Part shown: positions 53,942-58,261 of the stretch, piece after piece | How positions within the stretch are numbered: the stretch's first letter is position 1 | Layout: each line of letters begins with the position of its first letter | Assembly (NCBI GenBank): GCA_001657325.1 | Contig: LWRO01000017.1 | Span: forward strand, 62,001 to 126,000 | Direction: 5' to 3' | Length of the DNA: 64,000 nucleotides | From: Geitlerinema sp. BBD 1991-9 | GTDB lineage: Bacteria; Cyanobacteriota; Cyanobacteriia; Cyanobacteriales; Geitlerinemataceae | Position numbers and translations under genes: made by a program | Notes under the pieces: generated by a model | Told to the model about the DNA's origin: nothing | What the model saw: the letters and a program-made list of their open reading frames with translations, nothing else | Databases searched by the model: none

Positions 53942-54295
53942 TCAATGTTCTTCCGGAGCAGACTGCTCGGCACGCGGAACGAAGGAATGACCGCAGCTAC
54001 AGGTGCGTTCGGCGTGGGGATTGTAGAACCGAAATCCTCCCCCCATCAAGTCTTCGGTATAGTCCACCGTTAACCCTTCAACACGAGTAAGACTTTTTTC
54101 GTCTACAACCACTGACACCCCTTCACACTCACAGACACGATCGTCAGGTTGCAGTGTCTCGTCAAATCCGAGATCGTAGTACAGTTCGGCACATCCCCCG
54201 ACTCTAGCACGCACGCGCAAACGTGCTCCCGGAGTGTCGTGCTTGGATTGAAGCCGTGCGATTTCGCGAACGGCCGTTTGGCTCAAAAAAATCAT
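53942..54295 (-). CDS. IscA/SufA-type iron-sulfur carrier protein
   Basis: The 117-residue protein has the HesB/IscA fold with all three cluster cysteines: C35 in RVGGCAELYYDL, and C99 and C101 in TCSCGHSF. GGGFRFYNPHAERTCSCG is typical. It carries or transfers Fe-S clusters. It lies before rpsL on the same strand with an 84-bp gap, which contains no obvious stop signal, so partial co-transcription with the str operon is possible. It is divergent from hetR. Confidence 0.93.
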   Translation of the reverse strand: MIFLSQTAVREIARLQSKHDTPGARLRVRARVGGCAELYYDLGFDETLQPDDRVCECEGVSVVVDEKSLTRVEGLTVDYTEDLMGGGFRFYNPHAERTCSCGHSFVPRAEQSAPEEH

Positions 54296-54355: not shown

Positions 54356-55480
<1,125 letters not shown>

Positions 55481-55744
55481 TTCGATCGAACGTTACTAGA
55501 GGTGTTGAGCTGCCTCCGATCTCGCTTTCGATCGATAAATTTCTAACGGCATGAGACAGGCGCATGAGCCAATCGTGCGCCCGTTTTTTCGGCGAGACTG
55601 TTGCAACACTACCGAGTCGCGAAAAAAATTGCGGCTCCGACGATCGAGCCGAGCAATGCTAACGGAACCCACAAGTTTGGTATATCAGCCCAGGTCATCG
55701 AATCGAGTACGATAAAGGACAAATCAAACGGGATCGCACGACCC

Positions 55745-58261
55745 ATGATAGCGTCCGAACGAGTCACCTGGCTGAAAACGAACACGCGGTTGAGCGAACT
55801 GTCCGATGTCACCCTCGCGGAGTTCGCCGCAACGATCGAGGTGCGAACGGTTGCCGCCAACACCCGCCTCTCGAATACTGACGCACTTCCCGACGGAATT
55901 TATATCATCTACGAAGGTCGAGTGTACTGCGATCGACCCACGGCAAAATTTTGTTCGACGCCCGGCGCGATCCTCTATTTACAAGACGTTTTACTCGATC
56001 GACCGGTTTCAGGAGTCCTCACAACCCTCACGGATACTCAACTGTGGTGGATTTCCCGCCAACGCTTTCGAGAACTGCTCGAACGCCATCCCGAACTCGC
56101 TCAAATCCTGTCTCGTCAACTCGCGGCCGCCCTCGATCGGGTTTCGACCGAACTCGCCTACGAACGCGAGCGCCAAGCGGCCCTTCGTCCCTATCTCGTT
56201 CCCCGCATCCGACGCGGCATCATTGGAAACAGTCGTTACGCCGTTCGCCTTCGATCGCAAATCGAACAAGCGGCCCGAGATCGCCAGTCCGTTCTGATTT
56301 TCGGCGAACCTGGACTGGAAAAAGATAACGTTGCTGCTCTCGTACACTACAGTTCCCGCTGGCGGCGCGAACCGATGGTAAAACTGACGAGCAGTCTCCT
56401 CCAAACAAGCGGTGTGGATTTGTTTGGTCGATCGAACGGCAAGCCCGGTATCCTTGAATGGGTGGGAACCGGAACCGTCGTTCTCAACAACGTTCAAGAC
56501 TTACCTGACGAACTGAGACCTAAAATTTCCCGTCTCCTCGAAACCCGAACTTATATACCCGTCAACCGTAACGGCGATCCCCCTCTAGAACCCCGTTTTT
56601 GCGATGCCCGCGTCGTCCTCATTTCTGAGCGCGTCTTACCGGAACTCGAACCGTTCGTCGCACATACCATCAAGGTTCCTCCCCTGCGCGTTCGCAAAGC
56701 TGACATTAAAGCTAAAGTCGATTACTATCTCCGGTTGTGCTGTCAAGCTCGAGGACTTCCCAAACCGACCGTCACCCCCGAAGCTATCCGTCGCTTGCAA
56801 AGTTACGACTTTCCGAACAACTTGCGCGAGTTGGACAGTCTCGTCAAACGAGCTGTCACGCAAGCTTCAGGCGCATCCGAACTGACGGAAGAGTTGTTTT
56901 GGTCGAAAGACAACAAAAAAACGAAGTTTCGCTTCAACTTGTTCAAGGCCTATCCGCAATTGCGGCAGTTTCTCCGCAGCAATTTTTGGCCAGACGGTTT
57001 AAACTACGGCGTGACCTCTTGGGTTTTTGCCCTCGTGGTGATTGTGTTGTTTGTCGGGCCGCAAACTCGAGATCGAAACTTCGCACTCAATCTATTCTGG
57101 GCTTGGTGGTGGCCGCTCGTACTCGTTGGCTTTCCCTTTGTTGGACGATTGTGGTGTTCGGTCTGTCCGTTTATGATTTACGGCGAAATCGCGCAAAAAC
57201 TGTCGCTAAAACTGTTTCCTCGATCGCTCAAACGCTGGCCGCGCGAAACGGCCGAACAGTGGGGTGGTTGGTTTCTGTTTGGCTTGTTTGCACTGATTTT
57301 TCTCTGGGAAGAACTTTGGAAGTTAGAAAATACAGCCTATTTATCGAGCTGTTTGCTACTGCTGATTACAGCAGGGGCAATTATTTTTTCGTTAATTTTC
57401 GAGCGACGGTTTTGGTGTCGCTATCTCTGTCCGATTGGTGGAATGAACGGCTTGTTCGCCAAGCTATCGATGACCGAATTGCGGGCACAGACGGGAATTT
57501 GCTCGGCAGAGTGTACGACTTATCAGTGTTATAAAGGCGGGCCGGAAAAGGGAGAGGGACAGGAAACTGATGGCTGCCCACTCTACTCGCATCCCGCACA
57601 ATTACAGGACAATCGAGATTGCGTCTTGTGCATGACTTGTTTGAAAGCTTGTCCTCATCGTTCGGTAGAGTTTAACTGGCGGCTACCGGGTATCGAGCTG
57701 TGGACGACGCACGTTCCTCGAAGTTATGAAGTGGCGTTGTTGTTTCTCCTCCTCAGCGGCGTATTTCTCCATCGCTTGCCAGAACTTCAGGAGACGTTGC
57801 AGTGGTCTTTCGATCTCGATCGATTTTTACCGCACTTGGAATTGTCGCTTTTGGTGTTATTAGCTCCGGTTCTCGTACCGGTTTTCGGCTATTTAACGAT
57901 TTACGGGATTCATCGAGTTTGGAAAACGCCAAAGCCTCGATCGTTTGTCGAGTTATCGTATGGTTATCTTCCGCTTGTTTTGGGTGGTAATCTCGCTCAT
58001 TATTTAACATTGGGTTTGGGTGAAGCCGGGCAAATTCTCCCGACGATATGGGAAACTTTTGGCTCGAGTGGTGCGAATTTGCCGATTTGGGCTGCCAATT
58101 CTGCGGTTATCGCATTTTTACAAGGAACGACGCTGATTCTAGCGACAATTGTGTCGATTGTCTTAACTCAGAAAATTGCCAAACAGCCGTTTTGGACGTT
58201 ACTTCCCCAGCATCTGACTTCACTCTCGATCTCCTTTGCGTTTTGGACGATCGTTCTCTAA
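55745..58261 (+). CDS. fusion of cyclic-nucleotide-binding domain, degenerate sigma-54-type AAA+ domain and NapH/NosR-like membrane polyferredoxin
   Basis: With the ATG at 55745 the protein has 838 residues (a TTG at 55601 would add 48). Residues about 15-105 form a CNB-like domain. Residues about 157-377 are an AAA+ domain of sigma-54-activator type, in which Walker A reads GEPGLEKDN (187-195) and Walker B VVLNNVQ (245-251), so the catalytic residues are lost, and no GAFTGA loop is seen. The C-terminal half has about eight to ten membrane helices and cysteine motifs: CSVCPF (471-476), CRYLCPIGG (558-566), and the 4Fe-4S ferredoxin-like CVLCMTCLKACP (626-637), plus CSAEC. It is therefore a membrane iron-sulfur electron-transfer protein with a non-catalytic regulatory N-half. 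It starts 264 bp after hetR. Function unknown. Confidence 0.87.
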   Translation: MIASERVTWLKTNTRLSELSDVTLAEFAATIEVRTVAANTRLSNTDALPDGIYIIYEGRVYCDRPTAKFCSTPGAILYLQDVLLDRPVSGVLTTLTDTQLWWISRQRFRELLERHPELAQILSRQLAAALDRVSTELAYERERQAALRPYLVPRIRRGIIGNSRYAVRLRSQIEQAARDRQSVLIFGEPGLEKDNVAALVHYSSRWRREPMVKLTSSLLQTSGVDLFGRSNGKPGILEWVGTGTVVLNNVQDLPDELRPKISRLLETRTYIPVNRNGDPPLEPRFCDARVVLISERVLPELEPFVAHTIKVPPLRVRKADIKAKVDYYLRLCCQARGLPKPTVTPEAIRRLQSYDFPNNLRELDSLVKRAVTQASGASELTEELFWSKDNKKTKFRFNLFKAYPQLRQFLRSNFWPDGLNYGVTSWVFALVVIVLFVGPQTRDRNFALNLFWAWWWPLVLVGFPFVGRLWCSVCPFMIYGEIAQKLSLKLFPRSLKRWPRETAEQWGGWFLFGLFALIFLWEELWKLENTAYLSSCLLLLITAGAIIFSLIFERRFWCRYLCPIGGMNGLFAKLSMTELRAQTGICSAECTTYQCYKGGPEKGEGQETDGCPLYSHPAQLQDNRDCVLCMTCLKACPHRSVEFNWRLPGIELWTTHVPRSYEVALLFLLLSGVFLHRLPELQETLQWSFDLDRFLPHLELSLLVLLAPVLVPVFGYLTIYGIHRVWKTPKPRSFVELSYGYLPLVLGGNLAHYLTLGLGEAGQILPTIWETFGSSGANLPIWAANSAVIAFLQGTTLILATIVSIVLTQKIAKQPFWTLLPQHLTSLSISFAFWTIVL

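What the first reader, a model, noticed from the sequence alone, without database searches (positions are those of the whole stretch)
55745..58261. Cyclic-nucleotide domain fused to a dead sigma-54-type AAA+ domain and a membrane polyferredoxin, next to hetR
Sequence shows a CNB-like domain, an AAA+ domain whose Walker A (GEPGLEKDN) and Walker B (LNNVQ) have lost the residues for ATP hydrolysis and which lacks the GAFTGA sigma-54 loop, and a NapH/NosR-like half with three cysteine clusters and many helices. Established knowledge: cyanobacteria lack sigma-54, so an activator role is unlikely. Inference: the protein may be a redox or cyclic-nucleotide-gated electron-transfer unit in which the AAA part is a fixed scaffold. 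Its position 264 bp after hetR suggests, but does not prove, a link with filament development or nitrogen status.
Basis: partly seen in the sequence, partly recalled or inferred. Interest (0 to 1): 0.75.

Follow-up and report, generated by a model that had tools for sequence, protein, structure and literature searches.

The report
Cyanobacterial pseudo-AAA membrane iron–sulfur protein
This gene really does encode one continuous cyanobacterial membrane protein that joins a nucleotide-sensor-like domain and a hydrolysis-dead ATPase domain to an electron-carrying iron–sulfur module; it belongs to a widespread family with no described function that I could find, its neighbour hetR looks like a local coincidence, and a sister version sits beside sulfur-metabolism genes.

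Summary
The ORF at 55745-58261 (838 aa) is real, uninterrupted and conserved. About 60 of 100 genomes sampled from the same order encode the full CNB–AAA–polyferredoxin protein; 173 of 242 class genomes carry the family. It is not an assembly artefact. Two clades exist. Clade A (this gene) has an altered Walker A that keeps its lysine (GEPGLEKDN) and a Walker B changed to NN. Clade B (~40% identity) has a canonical GxGKT Walker A but no catalytic Glu. No member aligned has GAFTGA, and sigma-54 is absent. The C-terminal 440 residues are full-length relatives of standalone membrane polyferredoxins (NapH/FtrD kind), with 12 conserved cysteines on the predicted cytoplasmic side. The hetR adjacency is confined to the gene's own family, and a terminator-like hairpin follows hetR, so a developmental role is unsupported. 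Clade B adjoins cysteine synthase in 22 of 32 distinct loci (clade A 2 of 80), in some with PsbA/PetC paralogs and rhodanese, suggesting a sulfide/redox role. Best reading: a cytoplasmic, non-hydrolysing AAA/CNB module controlling membrane electron transfer. Function remains inferred.

The parts
55745..58261 (+). CDS, 838 aa CNB - pseudo-AAA+ - membrane polyferredoxin (clade A member)
55844..56089 (+). CNB (cNMP_binding-like) domain, residues 34-115, degenerate phosphate-binding cassette
56219..56914 (+). sigma-54-activator-type AAA+ domain and lid, residues 159-390
56303..56329 (+). altered Walker A GEPGLEKDN (residues 187-195)
56477..56497 (+). Walker B position VVLNNVQ (245-251), acidic residues replaced by Asn248/Asn249
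56939..58258 (+). membrane polyferredoxin half, residues 399-838, about 9 predicted TM helices
57155..57166 (+). CxxC (Cys471, Cys474) after the second TM helix
57416..57430 (+). CxxxC (Cys558, Cys562) after the fourth TM helix
57500..57652 (+). ferredoxin-like loop with Cys586/590/595/611 and Cys626/629/632/636, enough for two [4Fe-4S] clusters
55559..55581 (+). terminator-like hairpin with T run after hetR, separating it from this gene
54572..55480 (+). hetR, neighbour only, not judged part of the system

Best explanation
The protein is a membrane electron-transfer device of the NapH/FtrD kind. Its polyferredoxin half carries two [4Fe-4S] clusters plus two cysteine pairs at the cytoplasmic face and passes electrons between a cytoplasmic or quinone pool and a partner in or across the membrane (inferred from homology and cysteine conservation). 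Its N-terminal CNB and AAA+ domains, also cytoplasmic, do not hydrolyse ATP (inferred from lost residues). They most likely act as an assembly or gating module, possibly binding nucleotide without turning it over, that sets oligomeric state or access to the redox half (inferred). Clade A is the common cyanobacterial version. Clade B is an accessory version that works with cysteine synthase under sulfide or redox stress (inferred from gene neighbourhood).
For: Residues 399-838 are full-length relatives of a standalone Deinococcus polyferredoxin (hhalign 100%, 405 columns) and of an FTR1-linked, FtrD-type protein of Azospirillum (99.1%, 364 columns), and match E. coli NapH over the motif core (96.3%). 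Twelve cysteines are invariant in 16 clade A proteins and 11 are invariant across 72 diverse members, including a 25%-identical standalone one. Loop charges fit an N-in topology with all clusters cytoplasmic. Walker B is NN in nearly all of 116 clade A-like sequences and GEPGL[E/G]KDN is nearly invariant; in Cyanobiaceae-like relatives, whose CNB is gone and AAA eroded, GEPGLEKDN is still exact. Clade B: cysK in 23 of 33 loci (22 of 32 distinct) against 2 of 80 for clade A, with PsbA, PetC, rhodanese and DsrE nearby in some, including two annotated plasmids.
Against: No partner redox protein is conserved beside clade A. No solved structure of the membrane half was matched, so the fold has no outside support. 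Electron transfer, cluster content, nucleotide binding and oligomerisation are all untested. The clade B context is gene order only; 10 loci lack cysK within the stretch read, and no full sulfide:quinone reductase was shown beside it.
Confidence: 0.5

Rival explanations
1. A membrane-tethered redox sensor: the Fe-S half reads the redox state and the CNB/AAA part signals it to cytoplasmic partners, so electron flow is the input, not the job.
For: CNB and bEBP-type AAA domains are normally regulatory, and the strongest AAA relative by profile is VpsR, a regulator that also lacks GAFTGA (PMC3162934). Clade B lies in stress-like gene islands.
Against: No DNA-binding domain: only some 30 residues lie between the AAA lid and the first TM helix, and no HTH was found. 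The CNB is missing in several members while the redox half is kept.
Confidence: 0.3
2. A metal-handling reductase: like FtrD beside FTR1 iron permeases, it supplies or removes electrons for iron or copper at the periplasmic side.
For: FTR1-linked relative in Azospirillum; the Deinococcus standalone relative is beside a His-rich protein, with a heavy-metal P-type ATPase about 9 kb away.
Against: No metal transport gene is conserved beside clade A or B in the loci examined. The metal ties are those of relatives at 25-30% identity.
Confidence: 0.12
3. A hetR-linked component of filament development or nitrogen status.
For: hetR is 264 bp upstream on the same strand, and stays there in six further genomes of the same family.
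Against: Adjacency is absent from all other loci with upstream DNA (3 of 71 named loci have it, all of that family); a terminator-like hairpin follows hetR here; the protein is common in unicellular species without this arrangement.
Confidence: 0.03

Closest known systems
NapH/MauN family membrane ferredoxins (TIGR02163)
   Same: Paired CxxC(P) and CxxxCP motifs after TM helices, cysteines for two [4Fe-4S] clusters, cytoplasmic face
   Different: Scores 56-58 bits against a cut-off of 213; extra C-terminal TM helices; N-terminal CNB and AAA domains; no nap genes seen beside it
FtrD-type polyferredoxins of FTR1 iron uptake systems
   Same: Alignment over most of the membrane half (364 columns, 25% identity)
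   Different: No FTR1 permease found nearby; no CNB/AAA part in the FtrD-type protein
VpsR and other bEBP-like proteins without GAFTGA
   Same: bEBP-type AAA+ core with the GAFTGA loop lost; not a sigma-54 activator
   Different: VpsR is a soluble regulator (own knowledge: with receiver and DNA-binding domains); here the AAA core is joined to a CNB and a membrane Fe-S half, and Walker B has lost both acidic residues

Membership tests
sigma-54 activators (bEBPs) | GAFTGA loop | tested here: not met
   absent in all aligned members of both clades
sigma-54 activators (bEBPs) | Walker B acidic residues for hydrolysis | tested here: not met
   N248/N249 here; clade B lacks the Glu too
sigma-54 activators (bEBPs) | sigma-54 present in the genome | tested here: not met
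   PF04552 over cut-off in 0 of 60 genomes, own included; four control genomes ring
sigma-54 activators (bEBPs) | AAA+ core of the bEBP type | tested here: met
   PF00158 E 6.5e-12; best PDB sequence and fold matches are bEBPs
cyclic-nucleotide-binding proteins | CNB domain | tested here: met
   profile matches to PKG/PKA/CRP and over cut-off in relatives; single-sequence Pfam score of this protein is below cut-off
cyclic-nucleotide-binding proteins | phosphate-binding cassette Glu and Arg | tested here: inconclusive
   not seen in this protein by eye in the alignment; some orthologs keep an Arg; no binding test
NapH family (TIGR02163) | score over the curated cut-off | tested here: not met
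   57.6 against 213 bits
membrane polyferredoxin superfamily (Fer4_5) | Fer4_5 domain and paired CxxC(P)/CxxxCP motifs | tested here: met
   PF12801 over cut-off; motifs invariant
membrane polyferredoxin superfamily (Fer4_5) | bound [4Fe-4S] clusters and electron transfer | not testable with these tools
   needs purified protein
membrane polyferredoxin superfamily (Fer4_5) | fold match to a solved structure | tested here: inconclusive
   no credible PDB match for a confident model

The most novel reading that the evidence does not exclude
Cyanobacteria, which lack sigma-54, turned a bEBP-type AAA+ domain into a non-hydrolysing cytoplasmic gate on a membrane electron-transfer protein, with one branch for general redox balance and a second, cysK-linked branch for sulfide exposure.
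Probability: 0.3. Interest if true: 0.75.

Novelty: new variant of a known kind. Interest (0 to 1): 0.5.

Why it matters
A protein found in most cyanobacteria sampled, and annotated in places as a nitrogen regulator, is more likely a membrane redox unit with a retired AAA+ engine. If so, such annotations mislead, a new control point of cyanobacterial electron flow becomes testable, and the cysK-linked branch offers a handle on how some cyanobacteria live with sulfide.

Tried and rejected
Assembly artefact or two-gene fusion: rejected. hetR operon: rejected as a general feature. Conserved partner for clade A: none found among 81 loci; only lineage-level neighbours, such as an LtrA-like gene (recognised by eye) in 22. 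PDB fold searches of the membrane half listed no NapH/NosR-like or other credible match. Literature: searches for the domain combination returned nothing relevant, and two papers on sulfidic cyanobacteria do not mention it in the terms searched. Synechocystis slr1529 ('ntrX'; down to 0.29 under copper in PMC4182526; knock-out described in PMC5318462) may be a member judging by its annotation name, but I could not verify its sequence and lay no weight on it. The tree could not place the two long-branched outgroup rows firmly, so the root between clades A and B is open.

Full report
Observation. The ORF is continuous from 55745 to 58261 and gives 838 aa. The own genome has one copy. Homolog starts align with the ATG at 55745; the ORF tool's TTG start at 55601 is not supported.

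Is it an artefact? No. In 100 genomes of the same order, 84 have a hit, and my count of the table gives about 60 with an intact clade A CNB-AAA-Fe-S protein. In 242 genomes of the class, 173 carry the family at E <= 1e-60. The named collection gave at least 518 loci.

Two clades. Scores against the clade B profile fall into two sets (about 1390-1565 bits and about 700-815 bits for full-length copies), and clade B is one supported group in a tree of the membrane half (100/100). Some genomes have both clades and others only one: several genomes have B without A. Clade A Walker A is GEPGLEKDN in 96 of 116 distinct sequences at 42% identity or more, and a near variant in the rest; the lysine is always kept. 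Walker B is NN in nearly all of them. Clade B has GxGKTF in every member read, and the Walker B catalytic position is mostly Asn, sometimes Gln or another non-acidic residue. No member shows GAFTGA. Hydrolysis is therefore unlikely in either clade (inference).

The Walker A motif outlives its surroundings. In Cyanobiaceae-like genomes (family f34) the CNB is absent and the AAA domain is reduced, yet GEPGLEKDN is exact in all seven genomes seen. Other members lack the CNB (L020/L130, L041, L048, L049, L190), and two have a second AAA copy (L184, L185). The altered Walker A thus seems to be kept for something other than catalysis (inference).

The membrane half. It aligns over most of its length with a standalone Deinococcus protein and an FTR1-linked Azospirillum protein, and with NapH over its core. 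Twelve cysteines are invariant in clade A; 11 hold across 72 members. The AlphaFold model of this half is good apart from the ferredoxin loop (mean pLDDT 85.4, pTM 0.86). The full-length model is weaker (pTM 0.45); its AAA part matches bEBP structures. Basic residues lie mostly in the loops that would be inside if the N-terminus is cytoplasmic.

hetR. It lies upstream in this genome, in L002-L005 and in L051, L053 and L054 (L005 and L053 are the same record), all of one family, and in no other locus examined, including a further family member with upstream DNA (L055). Of 80 named loci, 71 have 1.5 kb or more upstream and 3 have hetR. A hairpin with a T run at 55559-55581 follows hetR here (-23 kcal/mol for the stretch, z -2.9). 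One relative shows a similar hairpin and the others do not by the same simple scan. A shared operon is not supported.

Clade B context. Cysteine synthase lies downstream on the same strand in 23 of 33 loci (median centre distance 1.8 kb; 22 of 32 once the duplicate L176/L132 is dropped), against 2 of 80 clade A loci anywhere in stretches of like or greater length. PsbA, PetC, rhodanese, DsrE, DUF3365, DUF4079 and a 2-nitropropane dioxygenase-like gene recur in subsets; annotated cases are plasmids of Aulosira laxa and Pseudanabaena galeata. A published genome study ties special psbA variants and ArsR genes to sulfide:quinone reductase loci in cyanobacteria (PMC5061849). This fits a sulfide role but does not prove one.

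Sigma-54. PF04552 was not found over its cut-off in 60 genomes while four control genomes rang. This agrees with a survey that found sigma-54 and its activators absent from 29 cyanobacteria and named VpsR, DhaR and YplP as relatives without GAFTGA (PMC3162934).

Mechanism. Shown: domain order, conservation, loss of catalytic residues, cysteine conservation, clade B-cysK proximity. Inferred: topology, electron transfer, the gating or assembly role of the N-terminal part, the sulfide link. I put 0.5 on a redox device with a non-hydrolysing regulatory module and 0.3 on a pure redox sensor. Which electron donor and acceptor it uses is open.

Verdict. The most useful new facts are the cyanobacteria-wide spread, the two clades with different Walker A states, and the cysK neighbourhood of clade B.

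Noticed in passing
window 53942-54295 (-): A-type Fe-S carrier-like (IscA/HesB-like by eye) ORF divergent from hetR, between it and the rpsL/rpsG/fusA/tufA genes.
   Followed up: no
window 55559-55581 (+): Strong terminator-like hairpin right after hetR.
   Followed up: yes
L184:2143-5502 (+), L185: Natural variant with two AAA copies (CNB-AAA-AAA-polyferredoxin, about 1120 aa).
   Followed up: partly
L044 3198-5758 (+); G028:C175:20085-21722: Family members split over two frames or with an in-frame TGA, apparent pseudogenes or assembly errors.
   Followed up: no
L133:9027-11308 (+): Deinococcus ficus standalone polyferredoxin directly after a gene for a His-rich protein.
   Followed up: partly
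L045:3655-5073 (-): Distant standalone polyferredoxin in a cyanobacterium, about 25-28% identical to the membrane half, without CNB or AAA.
   Followed up: partly
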